Source of the DNA: a virus
Strand: one strand, 5' to 3'
Virus record (IMG/VR): IMGVR_UViG_3300034158_000006
Span: 1 to 43,780 of that record
Length of the DNA stretch: 43,780 bases
Shown here: positions 1,311 through 23,768 of the stretch, piece after piece
How the letters are laid out: every line of letters begins with the position of its first letter
Numbering within the stretch: the stretch's first letter is position 1
Made by a program: the position numbers and the translations under genes
Notes under the pieces: generated by a model
Database searches by the model: none
Seen by the model: only the letters and a program-made list of their open reading frames with translations
Told to the model about the DNA's origin: nothing

Positions 1311-1625
1311 TTATACGTCGGACGAGAAGGTCGGGGCGGCCAGGATGTCGGCGTACTTCGGATTCATTAGAGAAGCCCGGGGAATGCCGTACAGCGATTC
1401 GATTTCCGGGATACGGGAGGTAGGCACGTACCCTTGGGATACCCACTGCTGGACGGCCTGGAACGACACGCCAAGACTATTGGCGAGTGCGGACAGGCTA
1501 CCGGCGGTGACCACTGCATCGAGAATGCCGCTGTACTCCTTCGCCTCGGCCAGTCGGTTCAGCATGTGGCCGCTGGCGCCCTTGCCTACTGCGCGTTGGG
1601 TAAGTGCTTTCAGTTTGTTGCTCAT
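1311..1625 (-). CDS. YdaS/Cro-like helix-turn-helix regulator
   Basis: 104 residues from the ATG at 1625 (MSNKLKALTQ), preceded by AGGA. The C-terminal half contains a helix-turn-helix, LSALANSLGVSFQAVQQWV, followed by YVPTSRIPEIESLYGIPRA. This is the pattern of the YdaS/Cro family, in which the segment after the HTH ends in an R-x-P-x-(I/L)-E motif. It is the first gene leftward from the divergent control region 1626-1770, the usual place for a Cro-type repressor that controls both directions. The N-terminal 45 residues match nothing I know. A longer in-frame form starting at 1673 would run over the predicted leftward promoter, so it is unlikely. Confidence 0.8.
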   Translation of the reverse strand: MSNKLKALTQRAVGKGASGHMLNRLAEAKEYSGILDAVVTAGSLSALANSLGVSFQAVQQWVSQGYVPTSRIPEIESLYGIPRASLMNPKYADILAAPTFSSDV

Positions 1626-1661
1626 AGGTAATCCTGCGTCGTGATGGAGGTACGTCGCCGC

Positions 1662-1690
1662 AGAGTACGGCATTAAGCAAGATAGTGCAA
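1662..1690 (-). promoter_or_regulatory. Predicted leftward sigma70-type promoter
   Basis: Reading leftward, TTGCAC (1690-1685) and TACTCT (1667-1662) are separated by 17 bases. Transcription would begin near 1655 and cover the HTH regulator, the 75-residue protein and the primase. The region also holds GCAAG repeats that could be operator half-sites. Confidence 0.5.
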
Positions 1691-1696
1691 GAAACT

Positions 1697-1745
1697 ACCG
1701 TTTATCGAAATCGCTAGACAGCGCAAGCAGTAGGTTGTACATTTG
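1697..1745 (+). promoter_or_regulatory. Early promoter module, copy a
   Basis: A 49-base element upstream of the lipoprotein gene. It runs ACCGTT, TCG, then GCGCAAG, six bases, and GTTGTACATTTG (1734-1745). It aligns without gaps to 3158-3206 with about 30 identities out of 49, and closely to 8127-8176. The TACATT part is a plausible -10 box. It also contains TTATCGAAA (1702-1710), which recurs at 8179-8187. Probable rightward early promoter with a shared regulator site; inferred from the repeat and its position. Confidence 0.6.
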
Positions 1746-1770
1746 CTTCACCAACACAGGAGCCCCAACC

Positions 1771-2145
1771 ATGAAACGCCTTTTAATCGCCCTTACCCTT
1801 TCCGCAACCCTTTCCGGGTGCTCGACCATCATGAACGACCGTATGACCGACGTGCAGGTCACGTCCGAGCCATCCGGTCAGCACTTCAGCATTACCGACG
1901 AAGATGGTCAGCGCGTCGCTACAGGCGTCACGCCGGCTAAAGTTAACCTGGACGCAGCAGCGGGTTTCTTCGACGGGCAGACCTACCAGGTGGCATACGA
2001 CAAAGGCCCGACCGTAGAACTCGACTCGCGCGTCACTGGCTGGTACTGGGTCGGCTTTTGTATCAGCGTGGTGTCGGGCCTGATGGTCGACCCCGCTACC
2101 GGCGATATGTTTTCGCTTCCTGATAACGTGAACGGGACTTATTGA
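1771..2145 (+). CDS. Phage-encoded lipoprotein
   Basis: 124 residues from the ATG at 1771, with CAGGAG upstream. The N-terminus is a lipoprotein signal peptide: MKRLLIALTLSAT, then the lipobox LSGC, with Cys near residue 17. The mature protein begins STIMNDRMTDVQVTSEPSGQ, resembling bacterial PEGA-like or YceK-like lipoproteins in which a short beta domain follows STIMN. A hydrophobic WYWVGFCISVVSGLMVDPATG segment near residues 88-110 resembles the glycine-rich membrane-associated part of such proteins. First gene of the rightward block, so likely expressed early and attached to a membrane. A superinfection-exclusion or envelope role is possible but is only inference. Confidence 0.8.
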   Translation: MKRLLIALTLSATLSGCSTIMNDRMTDVQVTSEPSGQHFSITDEDGQRVATGVTPAKVNLDAAAGFFDGQTYQVAYDKGPTVELDSRVTGWYWVGFCISVVSGLMVDPATGDMFSLPDNVNGTY

Positions 2146-3239: not shown

Positions 3240-3500
3240 ATGACTACTGATACTCAGCGCCACGCGAACAAGATCCGCAAATTCGAAGCCGCTATCGAGC
3301 GCGCTGGTGTAGATCGCGTTTCAGACAAGATCGGCCGCGGCGCCTTCAGCTCTCTGGAATCCGCTCGTGATGCGCAGACCCGCCGTCAGAGCCCGACTAT
3401 TATAGCTAACTTCCTGGCCGATGCTCAGCAGCGCTGCGAAGAGTTCCTGAACCTGCAGTGCGACGAAGACGTGTACGGCGTTCTCTGGAGCATTAAGTGA
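3240..3500 (+). CDS. Hypothetical early protein (86 aa)
   Basis: Strong Shine-Dalgarno (AGGAGAAGG). First gene after promoter module b. Helical, charged protein starting MTTDTQRHANKIRKFEAAIE, with no recognised domain. Followed in a GTGA overlap by the next gene, so the block 3240-5528 looks like one operon. Confidence 0.75.
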   Translation: MTTDTQRHANKIRKFEAAIERAGVDRVSDKIGRGAFSSLESARDAQTRRQSPTIIANFLADAQQRCEEFLNLQCDEDVYGVLWSIK

Positions 3501-3667
3501 ACCGCTTCAAACCCAATCAGACCGTCCGCATTAACGACACGCAGAGCGAGTACCACAAGTGCCTGGCGCGTGTCGTGAAGGTCGACCAGAAGAGCTACGA
3601 CGTGGCTGTAGGGCCTACCACAATGCGCGTCGTCCCCGAACAACTGCTAGGAGTACGCAAGCCGTGA
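3497..3667 (+). CDS. Small hypothetical protein (56 aa)
   Basis: GTG start in a GTGA overlap, with TGGAG upstream. The sequence (VNRFKPNQTVRIN, then LARVVKVDQKSYDV, VPEQLLGV) reads like a small SH3-like or Tudor-like beta barrel of the kind found in many phages. That fold is inferred from the alternating pattern only. Also overlaps the next gene by GTGA. Confidence 0.65.
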   Translation: MNRFKPNQTVRINDTQSEYHKCLARVVKVDQKSYDVAVGPTTMRVVPEQLLGVRKP

Positions 3668-4201: not shown

Positions 4202-4396
4202 ATGCTTCAGCCACCAGTATCGGACCTCACGCCTTGGCGCCCAGGTCACTGGATCACACAAACCGGGTACGCGCTAAACGACAAAGATTTAATTGTCGGA
4301 ACGAAGCGCGTTCCCGAAAGACGTACGGACATGCAAGCCAGCGTGCTCGAAGTGGATTTAGCAATCGAAAAGGTGATGCGCAAATGGCAGGACTAA
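4202..4396 (+). CDS. Hypothetical protein (64 aa)
   Basis: AAAGGAG Shine-Dalgarno 8 bases before the ATG. Begins MLQPPVSDLTPW and ends in a helix with KVMRKWQD. Its end overlaps the start of the CsrA-like gene by 13 bases, so the two are probably co-translated. Function unknown. Confidence 0.65.
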   Translation: MLQPPVSDLTPWRPGHWITQTGYALNDKDLIVGTKRVPERRTDMQASVLEVDLAIEKVMRKWQD

Positions 4397-4668
4397 TGCT
4401 CTCCCGTAAGGCCGGACAGTCTGTCCGCTTAGTGATCGATGGCAAAGCTGAATACGTCGATATCCTCGAGGTGTCGGGCGGTTCGTGCAAGATGCGTATC
4501 CTTTCAAGCCTTCAGGTTGAACGCGTTCGCTTCAAGGATTCTCTGCAAATTGCTGAAGGCGTAACGGTCACGGTTGTTGATCTCGCCAAAGGCTACGCCA
4601 AGCTTGGATTCGTCGCGCCCCGCGAAATACAGATCCTGCGTACCGAACTGATAAAGGAGGACGTATGA
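4384..4668 (+). CDS. CsrA/RsmA-family RNA-binding regulator with an insertion
   Basis: 94 residues. The start at 4384 is preferred over 4396 because AAGGTG is well spaced and residues 4-12 (LMLSRKAGQ) match the conserved CsrA first strand L-x-L-(T/S)-R-(R/K)-x-G. Residues 60-94 match the second half of CsrA: VTVTVVDLAKGYAKLG, then APREIQI and R86 in the position of the RNA-binding Arg44. About 40 extra residues (19-58) separate these halves; ordinary CsrA is about 60 residues. Pseudomonas RsmN/RsmF also carries an insertion, but this one is placed and composed differently. CsrA dimers bind GGA motifs near ribosome binding sites, so this protein probably alters translation of host or phage mRNAs. 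That role is inference. Confidence 0.8.
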   Translation: MAGLMLSRKAGQSVRLVIDGKAEYVDILEVSGGSCKMRILSSLQVERVRFKDSLQIAEGVTVTVVDLAKGYAKLGFVAPREIQILRTELIKEDV

Positions 4669-4922
4669 CGGCGGGTACTATTCACCACGGCGGTCACAAG
4701 GAGCGCAGCCCGGAGCACCGTCGAACTAAAGAAATGCTTAGTCCGCAGGTCGCTAAGACGGTGTGGACCAGTTTGCAAGTGCTGATGAAAGCCCGTGGCG
4801 TAACACAGGAAGAACTTGCCGCTGCGCTTAACTGCAAACGAGGGACTCTCAAAGGTATAGCTACCGGATATCTTTCTCGCGAACTGATGTTACGCATAAA
4901 GAAATGGTCCTCAAAGACGTGA
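4665..4922 (+). CDS. XRE-type helix-turn-helix protein
   Basis: 85 residues, ATGA overlap with the CsrA-like gene and a perfect AAGGAGG. Residues about 45-80 (VTQEELAAALNCKRGTLKGI) form a Cro/C1-type helix-turn-helix. The first 20 residues are His/Arg rich. Being coupled to the CsrA-like gene suggests that two regulators, one of DNA and one of RNA, are made together. Confidence 0.7.
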   Translation: MTAGTIHHGGHKERSPEHRRTKEMLSPQVAKTVWTSLQVLMKARGVTQEELAAALNCKRGTLKGIATGYLSRELMLRIKKWSSKT

Positions 4923-21059: not shown

Positions 21060-23768
21060 TTACGCTGGCGGGAACGCGTCGTCATCTGCATACATCCTTA
21101 CGTCGTAATTCACGGCCTTCACGCTGCACGTCCGTGTGCCTTGTGGTGATACGTCAGTAATAAGCGCGGGGAAACACCACTTGGATTCATGGCCGAACTG
21201 GATAATGGGCGGGGTAGCAATCACGCCGCTTAGATCCGGCACGAAGTCCAGGGTCGGAATGGTGAACTTATAATCATCGATGCGCGTTGCGGTATACGGT
21301 CCTGACGCTGTGCCATCCTTACGGCGCACCAGCACCTTGTAGACGCCCGGTAGGGTCCAGTCTAGTGGCTCAGATGACTCCAGAGTAACGGGAGGGCCGG
21401 CGGTATACCCAACCACTTCGGCGCTCTGCCCATAGCCTGGAGTAGTAACGCCGAGGGCCACATAATCAAAGTATGCGCTGTTCAGTGCGTCAAGTTCAGT
21501 CTTGAATGAATACTCCCTTTGGCGATACAAGTGCGCGCGGCGCTTACGCATGCCCCACCGCCAAGCCTTATACCGAACGCCCACGCCATCGAGTTTCAGC
21601 TTCTCGATTCGTTCCCCGGCATCGCCCGGAAGACGGCATTCTACCGTCTCGGTCTGCTTGGTAACGTGGTCGTAATACTCAACATCCACGCCGTCGAAAT
21701 CGTCCGGCTGATCCGGCATAGCAAAGTCATAGGCCAGTGGTTCAAGCATAATCTGAGGGTTATACACGTGGTCAAAAGAAGGCCCGCGCGTCTCATCTCG
21801 CACCGGAACCAGTAGCCCCCGGTCGATAGTCAGTTCCGAAAATCCTACTTGCAAGGCGTCTATCACATGCGACTTTACCGTACTGGAATCGGCAATAATC
21901 CTGTCGTAAGTATCCCCTCGCGGCGTCCACCGGGTTGATTCCAAGCGGTTCAGTTCAACAAGGTCGATATCCGTCGTATCTGAATACCCTACGCTCCGCA
22001 GGATATGGCCCACGGCTGCGGATATTTCCCTTGTTGGTTGCGGGGCCTGCCATGTCGTACCCCGCAGCACCGGCAAGATACGGGTACACGCCAGGTTGAT
22101 TAGGCTTTCGCTCTCAGACGATAACCTATCGCCGCCCCGAATGTTGCAGGTCATCGTCGTCAGTCCTGCGTAACTCGTTGGGGAAGAGCTAGCCATAAGA
22201 CCTTTTAGCCGCTGCCACATGGACGTGTCATGGACTTCGCTAGGCTGCAACCCCCCCTGCTGAATGACTAGTTTCTTTACTCGAACTTCAGGGCGCATCG
22301 CGTAGGGCAGATTTATGCGGAAGGTCTTGCCTACGGCATCCAAGGAGTTGGATGACATAGAGTACGTGCCCACCGTCCATGCGCCTCCAATCGCCATGTC
22401 GCGGTACTCGAAAGAGTGGTTCGCGTCGATGGTGAAGTATTCACCTTTAGCGCCGAGGCCCACGATCCCGCTAGGATAAAACATATCCCACTCTAGTGCG
22501 GTTATTACCTGGCCTTCAGGGCATGCCGGGAATGGTCCCCGATACCCACCGGTTAGGTTTGAGCTATCGAGCGTAACCTGTGCGGCATTCGAAGACAGAC
22601 TAACCCAACCCGGCCATGCGGTGTCGTCCGTGCCGCCGGACTTAATCCGCTTAACCTGGAGCGCTTGGGCCGAGTAACTCAGGACGCGGTATCGGATGCC
22701 ACGATAGGACATGACCATCACAACCGAGCCTATGACCAAGCCAGTGCCTGGAGCACCGCCGTCGTAGTCGAGTTCCATCGTAGTCGAGGTAACCGCATGG
22801 ACTACATACAGCCCCGCGTTGTCCCCGAGGATCTGAATAGTGTCCCCCACGATAAAGTTGTGCTGGGCGATAGGCCCGCTTATAACGTCGCGCCCCCCGG
22901 AGCCAGTACCGTCCGCGATGGTGTAGCTATAGGGCGCTCCAGCATTGATCAACGTGCCTACCGCCCAGTCTGAAGGGAAGGTGCCCGCGCCCGTTGGGAT
23001 GCCTACCACGTCGCCGTTGAAGGTAAATACAGAGGCGGTTGCTGCTGATGTTAGCTCCGATTCGGCAGTAAGCTCCAAGCCATTGGCTCCGGTATTACTG
23101 GCGCCAACCTCGGGAGCCGTGTACCAGAAGTAGTGTGCCACGTCGGCTGACAAATCTGCACCGGGGCCGTATATCTCGAATACCGCATCATCGCCCAACG
23201 TGGGCAGCGGAGTTTGTCCGGTCTTCACGTCTTGGGGTGAAATCAAGTACGACCCTTGGCCTACGCTCAGACACATTTCGGTACGTGGTTCGCGTGGCGA
23301 AGCGTAGTAAGCGCGAGGAGGGATCAGATAGTCCGGATATCGTTGAGGGTTGTACCCGAACAACTCCGGCCGCACATCGTTGATCTTTACCTTGTTACCC
23401 TTACTGCTCCCCGCGTCTAGCCCTTTGCCATTCTGGCTATTACTGGTCCCGACGCCCGGCATTTTAGGGATTAGCATCCCGAGTATAGCTTTGGCGCCGA
23501 ATACTAAAGCAAACGTGATCGAGAATGGATCTGTGCCTTTAGGCTCGCGGTATATCTCGACGCGATCTGCGGCAGTGAACTCTGTGTTTAGCCACTGGTA
23601 TGGTAGTAAGCGCTCCCCATTTAGGTAAAGGCTGATCGCCAGCTTGCCTAGGTCAGTACGACGGGAAATGCCGTGACGGTAGAGCCACTCGGCCAAGGTT
23701 TGGCGCGAGCGTACCTTGTACGTCTCTTTACCTTCGTCAGAGAGGCGACTGGCATAAACCTCGATCAT
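21060..23768 (-). CDS. Tail tip attachment protein, TipJ/host-specificity family
   Basis: 902 residues from the ATG at 23768 (MIEVYASRLSDEGKE), which overlaps the NlpC stop by ATGA; an upstream ATG at 23813 lies inside that gene. The N-terminus (Y-x-V...LAEWLYRHGISR and a FSITFALVFGAKAILGMLIP hydrophobic segment) and the body with ISPQDVKTGQTPLPTLG match TipJ-type phage tail proteins, functionally like lambda J: they form the tail tip, touch the host and start DNA ejection. Slightly shorter than lambda J, without the long fibronectin-repeat C-terminus, so separate fibres likely decide host range. Confidence 0.9.
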   Translation of the reverse strand: MIEVYASRLSDEGKETYKVRSRQTLAEWLYRHGISRRTDLGKLAISLYLNGERLLPYQWLNTEFTAADRVEIYREPKGTDPFSITFALVFGAKAILGMLIPKMPGVGTSNSQNGKGLDAGSSKGNKVKINDVRPELFGYNPQRYPDYLIPPRAYYASPREPRTEMCLSVGQGSYLISPQDVKTGQTPLPTLGDDAVFEIYGPGADLSADVAHYFWYTAPEVGASNTGANGLELTAESELTSAATASVFTFNGDVVGIPTGAGTFPSDWAVGTLINAGAPYSYTIADGTGSGGRDVISGPIAQHNFIVGDTIQILGDNAGLYVVHAVTSTTMELDYDGGAPGTGLVIGSVVMVMSYRGIRYRVLSYSAQALQVKRIKSGGTDDTAWPGWVSLSSNAAQVTLDSSNLTGGYRGPFPACPEGQVITALEWDMFYPSGIVGLGAKGEYFTIDANHSFEYRDMAIGGAWTVGTYSMSSNSLDAVGKTFRINLPYAMRPEVRVKKLVIQQGGLQPSEVHDTSMWQRLKGLMASSSPTSYAGLTTMTCNIRGGDRLSSESESLINLACTRILPVLRGTTWQAPQPTREISAAVGHILRSVGYSDTTDIDLVELNRLESTRWTPRGDTYDRIIADSSTVKSHVIDALQVGFSELTIDRGLLVPVRDETRGPSFDHVYNPQIMLEPLAYDFAMPDQPDDFDGVDVEYYDHVTKQTETVECRLPGDAGERIEKLKLDGVGVRYKAWRWGMRKRRAHLYRQREYSFKTELDALNSAYFDYVALGVTTPGYGQSAEVVGYTAGPPVTLESSEPLDWTLPGVYKVLVRRKDGTASGPYTATRIDDYKFTIPTLDFVPDLSGVIATPPIIQFGHESKWCFPALITDVSPQGTRTCSVKAVNYDVRMYADDDAFPPA

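What the first reader, a model, noticed from the sequence alone, without database searches (positions are those of the whole stretch)
4384..4922. Phage CsrA-like regulator with inserted segment, coupled to an HTH gene
The two ends match CsrA, including the conserved Arg near the C-terminus, but about 40 residues separate strand 1 from strand 2. This could change dimer form or add a partner surface. A phage protein of this kind could redirect host post-transcriptional control or control its own mRNAs, many of which have GGA-rich starts.
Basis: partly seen in the sequence, partly recalled or inferred. Interest (0 to 1): 0.7.

Follow-up and report, generated by a model that had tools for sequence, protein, structure and literature searches.

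The report
Phage single-chain fused CsrA-pair protein
This probable Pseudomonas phage carries a small protein in which two copies of the core of the bacterial mRNA-control protein CsrA appear fused into one chain that keeps only one of the usual two RNA-binding faces, a design I could not find described and that the phage may use to re-impose control over host mRNAs, including those for anti-phage defence.

Summary
The gene is real (window 4384-4668, 94 aa) and CsrA-related, but "CsrA with an inserted segment" is better read as a fusion. The ~40 residues between strand 1 and strand 2 look like a second CsrA core: Pfam CsrA matches twice, profiles of relatives match full length, and AlphaFold2 gives a compact nine-stranded monomer (b1, b2-b4, one middle strand, b2'-b4', b5'). 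The RNA-contact residues known from RsmN are present in the N-terminal b1 and the C-terminal half; the second site is reduced to one degenerate strand. The prediction is a natural single-chain, single-site pseudo-dimer.

A CsrA-like gene of this kind is near-core in a phage group (29 of 32 contigs sharing a neighbour gene; the other three are fragments), under purifying selection, with b1 and b5' the best conserved segments. The same architecture occurs in a cultured Pseudomonas alcaligenes phage, 14 Xanthomonas/Stenotrophomonas plasmids and one Solirubrobacterales genome. The HTH gene is not conserved and is incidental; "GGA-rich starts" are Shine-Dalgarno sequences.

No paper found describes it; UniProt calls one fold-alike "carbon storage regulator". 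Function (monovalent RsmA mimic, possibly countering Gac/Rsm-controlled defence) is inference.

The parts
4384..4668 (+). gene of the fused (tandem) CsrA-family protein, 94 aa
   Evidence: Pfam PF02599 E 5.2e-14, two matched stretches; 20 related loci; dN/dS 0.06-0.25 for pairs with the window copy
4387..4410 (+). residues 2-9: strand b1 (AGLMLSRK), N-terminal half of the retained RNA site
   Evidence: AF2 strand 2-9; L4, L6, R8, K9 invariant in A8; matches RsmN contacts L4, L6, S7, R9
4420..4500 (+). residues 13-39: first core b2-b3-b4, the supposed insert
   Evidence: AF2 strands 13-18, 21-31, 34-39; residues 4-39 align to canonical CsrA 2-34
4513..4530 (+). residues 44-49: single middle strand standing where b5 of copy 1 and b1 of copy 2 would be
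   Evidence: AF2 strand 44-49; 23% mean identity among distant members against 72.5% for b1
4540..4617 (+). residues 53-78: second core b2'-b3'-b4'
   Evidence: AF2 strands 53-57, 60-68, 71-78; aligns to canonical CsrA
4627..4650 (+). residues 82-89: strand b5' (IQILRTEL), C-terminal half of the retained RNA site
   Evidence: R86 = E. coli CsrA R44 = RsmN R62; second most conserved segment
4202..4396 (+). upstream small ORF overlapping the gene start by 13 nt; present in most relatives
4665..4922 (+). HTH-like ORF overlapping the stop by 4 nt; not part of the conserved feature
   Evidence: weak HTH match; absent from all relatives tested

Best explanation
The protein is a naturally fused CsrA pair: one chain runs b1, core (b2-b3-b4), one middle strand, core (b2'-b3'-b4'), b5'. 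In canonical CsrA two chains swap b1 and b5 to make a ten-stranded dimer with two RNA faces, each formed by b1 of one chain and b5 of the other. Here the N-terminal b1 and the C-terminal b5' remain and keep the RNA-contact residues, giving one complete ANGGA-binding face. The other face (b5 of copy 1 plus b1 of copy 2) is collapsed into one strand, so the protein should be a monomer with a single RNA site. Most likely it works as a monovalent RsmA/CsrA mimic made from the early region: it binds single GGA sites at ribosome-binding sites and blocks translation, without needing host subunits and with less avidity for multi-GGA sponge RNAs (RsmX/Y/Z). A fitting purpose is to hold Gac/Rsm-controlled host genes, including anti-phage defences, in the repressed state. 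Basis by step: fusion and nine-strand fold, supported by computation; single intact site, inferred from residues plus published topology; RNA binding, inferred; host targets and counter-defence role, speculative (about 0.3).
For: Two Pfam CsrA stretches in this protein and in each of five other members scanned separately. N half aligns to canonical CsrA 2-34 (96.8%), C half to 7-51 (98.3%). A profile built only from proteins outside this phage group (plasmids, Solirubrobacterales, phage vsMR) matches the window protein from residue 4 to 90 in one piece, E 2.6e-12; canonical CsrAs match the phage profile only as a b1 piece plus a C-half piece, or the C half alone. AF2: pLDDT 83.5, pTM 0.73, nine strands in the expected order; a diverged member (31% identical to the window protein) gives nine strands in the same order, pLDDT 81.9. 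Foldseek: 13 viral models at E<=1e-3, TM 0.68-0.92, one named carbon storage regulator. RNA contacts of RsmN (L4, L6, S7, R9, R49, A54, R56, V58, I60, R62; PMC3791407) correspond to L4, L6, S7, K9, K73, A78, R80, I82, I84, R86. Topology from PMC3791407 and PMC7652899. b1 and b5' are the best conserved segments (78% and 61%; middle strand 40%, b4 23%). A CsrA-like gene is in every record of the phage group of 19 kb or more. Gac/Rsm activation restricts phages in P. protegens (PMC11888443).
Against: In the window protein alone the internal repeat is not significant by pairwise shuffling (108 of 500 shuffles score as well); it is clear only in the Solirubrobacterales and plasmid members (0-10 of 500) and through profiles and structure. 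The middle strand keeps R49 in most members, so the second site may not be fully lost. Foldseek against the PDB gave no hit below E 0.1. The host is inferred only from structural genes and from vsMR. No RNA target is known.
Confidence: 0.6

Rival explanations
1. Ordinary homodimeric CsrA carrying an unrelated ~40-residue insert between b1 and b2, comparable with the RsmN helix insert; the dimer is still made from two chains and has two RNA sites.
For: Canonical CsrA aligns to the two ends with a gap; residues 13-52 alone have no Pfam hit; the repeat is not significant pairwise in this protein.
Against: AF2 gives the segment the same b2-b3-b4 pattern as the other half and no helix; in L026 and the plasmid members the segment is clearly a CsrA core; a compact monomer fold recurs in a diverged member.
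Confidence: 0.1
2. Same fold, but the targets are the phage's own mRNAs: the protein times translation of early or late phage genes and does not act on the host.
For: Early-region position in a steady gene order; 10 of 24 early starts have ANGGA near the ribosome-binding site against 13% of background 35-mers.
Against: That excess is expected from Shine-Dalgarno sequences (20 of 24 starts have the core); the gene's own leaders mostly lack ANGGA; no conserved phage target was found.
Confidence: 0.25
3. Same fold, but an antagonist: the single-site protein occupies GGA sites or sponge RNAs, or pairs with host RsmA, without repressing, and so relieves host RsmA repression.
For: Full glgC repression needs both RNA sites of CsrA (PMC7652899), so a single-site protein could be a weak repressor and a competitor.
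Against: Single-site CsrA targets exist (hfq), so monovalent repression is possible; a chain that already supplies both cores has no obvious need of a host subunit; relieving RsmA would turn on Gac/Rsm defences (PMC11888443), which would not obviously help a phage.
Confidence: 0.15
4. The CsrA fold is kept but RNA binding is lost; the protein binds another protein.
For: Core 1 and the middle strand are poorly conserved, and the C-terminal helix of CsrA is missing in the model.
Against: The segments under the strongest constraint are exactly the RNA-contact strands, in phages, plasmids and a bacterium.
Confidence: 0.05

Closest known systems
Canonical CsrA/RsmA/RsmE (PF02599)
   Same: Both RNA-site strands, the L4 and R44 equivalents, and the b2-b3-b4 core
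   Different: One chain holds two cores; nine predicted strands instead of five per chain; no C-terminal helix in the model; below the TIGR00202 equivalog cut-off (44.1 against 70.1 bits)
RsmN/RsmF of P. aeruginosa (PDB 4kji, 4krw, 4k59)
   Same: A CsrA relative with a rearranged fold; first-ranked PDB fold match (prob 0.96, E 0.12); contact residues in register, including the same numbering of L4, L6, S7
   Different: RsmN has one core with a helix inserted between b2 and b3 and works as a dimer of two chains (PMC3791407); here the extra segment is b-stranded and CsrA-like
Phage RsmM-type CsrA, e.g. F116 p24
   Same: CsrA-family gene in Pseudomonas phages (PMC7366521)
   Different: One canonical CsrA domain at the N terminus plus an unrelated C-terminal extension
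Plasmid-borne RsmQ (pQBR103)
   Same: A mobile element's CsrA relative acting on host behaviour (PMC9928087)
   Different: Described there as an RsmA homologue; no fusion is mentioned in the passages read
Engineered E. coli CsrA dimers with one R44A site (Mercante et al. 2009, as reviewed in PMC7652899)
   Same: A CsrA unit with a single working RNA site
   Different: Made in the laboratory from two chains by mutation, not a natural fusion

Membership tests
CsrA family, Pfam PF02599 | Score above the gathering threshold (27 bits) | tested here: met
   52.4 bits, two stretches
CsrA equivalog (TIGR00202 / NF002469) | Score above the equivalog cut-off (70.1 / 73 bits) | tested here: not met
   44.1 and 40.5 bits
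Canonical CsrA/RsmA | Key RNA-binding residues L4 (b1) and R44 (b5) | tested here: met
   L4/L6 in b1 and R86 in b5', invariant in A8
Canonical CsrA/RsmA | One b1-b5 unit per chain followed by a C-terminal helix | tested here: not met
   Nine predicted strands, two cores, no helix
Canonical CsrA/RsmA | Homodimer | not testable with these tools
   Structure prediction was for single chains only
Canonical CsrA/RsmA | Two RNA-binding faces | tested here: inconclusive
   One face complete by residues; the other reduced to one strand that matches neither motif apart from R49
Canonical CsrA/RsmA | Binds ANGGA RNA | not testable with these tools
   Needs a binding assay
RsmN/RsmF | Helix inserted between b2 and b3 | tested here: not met
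   No helix in the model; the extra segment is b-stranded
Phage RsmM/F116 type | Single canonical CsrA domain at the N terminus | tested here: not met
   F116 p24 has its whole CsrA domain at residues 1-50 and aligns only to residues 49-89 of the window protein

The most novel reading that the evidence does not exclude
A natural class of single-chain, single-site CsrA proteins, shared by phages, plasmids and at least one bacterial lineage, that escapes titration by multi-GGA sponge RNAs and lets phages lock the Gac/Rsm pathway in its repressed, defence-off state.
Probability: 0.2. Interest if true: 0.8.

Novelty: new variant of a known kind. Interest (0 to 1): 0.58.

Why it matters
The CsrA proteins described in the papers read here work as two-site dimers. 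A natural fusion with one site would be a ready-made test of what bivalency is for (bridging of two GGA sites, titration by sponge RNAs), a question so far approached with engineered R44A dimers. If its targets are Gac/Rsm-controlled genes, it would give phages a way to act on the post-transcriptional switch that governs anti-phage defence in Pseudomonas.

Tried and rejected
Close relatives in the named-phage collection: only F116-type hits over 41 residues; the vsMR homologue was reached only through L078. Own-leader ANGGA sites as a sign of autoregulation: not conserved. GGA at starts as evidence of targets: explained by Shine-Dalgarno sequences. HTH gene as a partner: absent in the relatives. 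Pairwise internal repeat in the window protein: not significant alone. The Pseudomonas silesiensis plasmid protein (L023) first looked like a fusion but by eye is a single core with a long insert. Megablast of the first 24 kb against phages: no match. Literature searches on fused, tandem, monomeric or phage CsrA gave no report of a fused CsrA. PDB Foldseek on the diverged model was uninformative. Scans with L021 and L022 as queries gave no further relatives.

Full report
What is there. Window 4384-4668 (+) encodes MAGLMLSRKAGQSVRLVIDGKAEYVDILEVSGGSCKMRILSSLQVERVRFKDSLQIAEGVTVTVVDLAKGYAKLGFVAPREIQILRTELIKEDV. The record is a 43,780-base IMG/VR virus contig with one CsrA-family match. Pfam CsrA scores 52.4 bits (cut-off 27) in two stretches, the better at residues 49-92 on profile 7-50; the first 52 residues alone match profile 2-34 at E 0.012, below the cut-off; the last 55 alone match at E 4.1e-10. 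So profile positions 7-34 are covered twice. It falls short of the CsrA equivalog TIGR00202.

The 'insert' is probably a second core. AlphaFold2 on an 18-sequence family alignment gives a monomer with pLDDT 83.5 and pTM 0.73 and nine strands: 2-9, 13-18, 21-31, 34-39, 44-49, 53-57, 60-68, 71-78, 83-85. The b2-b3-b4 pattern occurs twice, joined by one strand. Profile comparison places the N half on canonical CsrA 2-34 (96.8%) and the C half on 7-51 (98.3%); the N-half score owes much to b1. In the window protein alone, core 1 against core 2 is not significant by shuffling (108 of 500), and core 1 without b1 has no Pfam hit. The architecture is much clearer in others: a Solirubrobacterales MAG protein (L026; Pfam 101 bits; internal repeat 0 of 500 shuffles) and Xanthomonas/Stenotrophomonas plasmid proteins (1-10 of 500). 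A profile made only from these and the vsMR phage protein matches the window protein in one piece from residue 4 to 90, E 2.6e-12, while the phage profile splits most canonical CsrAs into a b1 piece and a C-half piece, the rest matching by the C half only.

Relatives and context. Scans of IMG/VR gave 20 related loci, counting two distant ones at about 40% (alignment). Searching with a conserved neighbour (3497-3667) gave 32 contigs. Of these, 24 have the gene at 63-97% identity (one, on contig 3300034358_000012, with a broken reading frame), one more has it elsewhere in the record (L077), one has a compact 85-aa form (L078), and three have a diverged form (L062, L067, L070); the three without a hit are contigs of 8.7-12 kb, so no record of 19 kb or more lacks it. 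Order is steady: g3497, g3909, g4202, csrA-like, g4904, g5618, a DUF2800-type gene, a Gp2.5-like single-strand-binding gene. The HTH ORF of the finding is in none of them. Purifying selection is clear (dN/dS 0.06-0.25 for pairs with the window copy). The diverged L067 protein, 31% identical to the window protein, is predicted with nine strands in the same order, pLDDT 81.9, pTM 0.75. Foldseek against predicted viral proteins gives 13 matches at E<=1e-3 with TM 0.68-0.92 and 10-74% identity, one named carbon storage regulator, so the fold is spread more widely among phages. In 61 Solirubrobacterales-order genomes only one has a full-length match; 49 others match by the C-terminal part, as canonical CsrA does. 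A homologue also lies in the cultured phage vsMR of Pseudomonas alcaligenes, and 14 Xanthomonas/Stenotrophomonas plasmids carry the fused form.

How it probably works. In RsmA the sheets are b5A-b2B-b3B-b4B-b1A and its mate (PMC3791407); the RNA faces are formed by b1 of one chain and b5 of the other, L4 and R44 being critical (PMC7652899). In the fusion the N-terminal b1 and the C-terminal b5' are the pair that makes one face. RsmN contacts L4, L6, S7, R9, R49, A54, R56, V58, I60 and R62 (sequence confirmed) fall on L4, L6, S7, K9, K73, A78, R80, I82, I84 and R86. The other face would need a b5 and a b1 between the cores; only one strand (LQVERVR) is there, matching neither motif apart from R49. 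Conservation agrees: among six distant members b1 is 72.5%, the b5' segment 51.7%, the middle strand 22.9% and b4 15.6%.

Purpose. Not shown. Structural genes resemble those of Pseudomonas phages (portal 74% to PAJU2, terminase 64% to IME307), so a Pseudomonas host is likely. In Pseudomonas the Gac/Rsm pathway, in which sponge RNAs titrate RsmA, switches on defences including BstA and PARIS and lowers phage plaquing (PMC11888443). A phage RsmA-like repressor with a single site, hence presumably less avidity for multi-site sponge RNAs, would push the switch back. Alternatives are control of phage mRNAs or antagonism of host RsmA. Full glgC repression needs both sites of CsrA, but single-site targets exist.

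Known or new. Phage-borne csrA is known (30 phages listed in PMC7366521; the RsmM type is in P. aeruginosa phages; F116 carries a single canonical domain). Plasmid RsmA homologues are known (PMC9928087). No paper found by the searches describes a fused CsrA, though only open-licence papers were searched. I rate it a new variant of a known kind.

Noticed in passing
L024:1360-1701, L033:3001-3351, L034:3001-3348: Xanthomonas and Stenotrophomonas plasmids (14 records) carry a fused CsrA annotated only as carbon storage regulator; in X. citri plasmid plB it sits next to a canonical csrA.
   Followed up: partly
L026:5998-6369: A Solirubrobacterales MAG encodes a clear fused CsrA pair; only 1 of 61 genomes of the order has a full-length match.
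   Followed up: partly
L081 (OR687460.1, about 22207-22464): Cultured Pseudomonas alcaligenes phage vsMR, deposited without annotation, encodes a fused-CsrA-like protein.
   Followed up: partly
L062:3792-4082, L067:3235-3531, L070:3838-4128: A strongly diverged CsrA-like form, placed upstream of the g3497 neighbour instead of downstream, with the b1 and b5 motifs intact and the middle rewritten.
   Followed up: yes
window 3497-3667: A 56-aa protein 79-96% identical in 32 phage contigs with no PHROG match: a strongly conserved small early protein of unknown function.
   Followed up: no
L023:2956-3330 (Pseudomonas silesiensis plasmid pPL1): A CsrA-like protein with b1 and b5 ends and a long insert that does not look like a second core; possibly a separate RsmN-like variant.
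   Followed up: partly
window 1735-2145: Predicted lipoprotein (LSGC motif near the N terminus, PHROG 6823, unknown function) beside a repressor-like gene at 1311-1673(-); could be a superinfection-exclusion gene.
   Followed up: no
L020 / L057 (contig 3300034358_000012), L020:3527-3792: The csrA-like frame is broken after GGSCPRSG in one contig: a frameshift or an assembly error.
   Followed up: no
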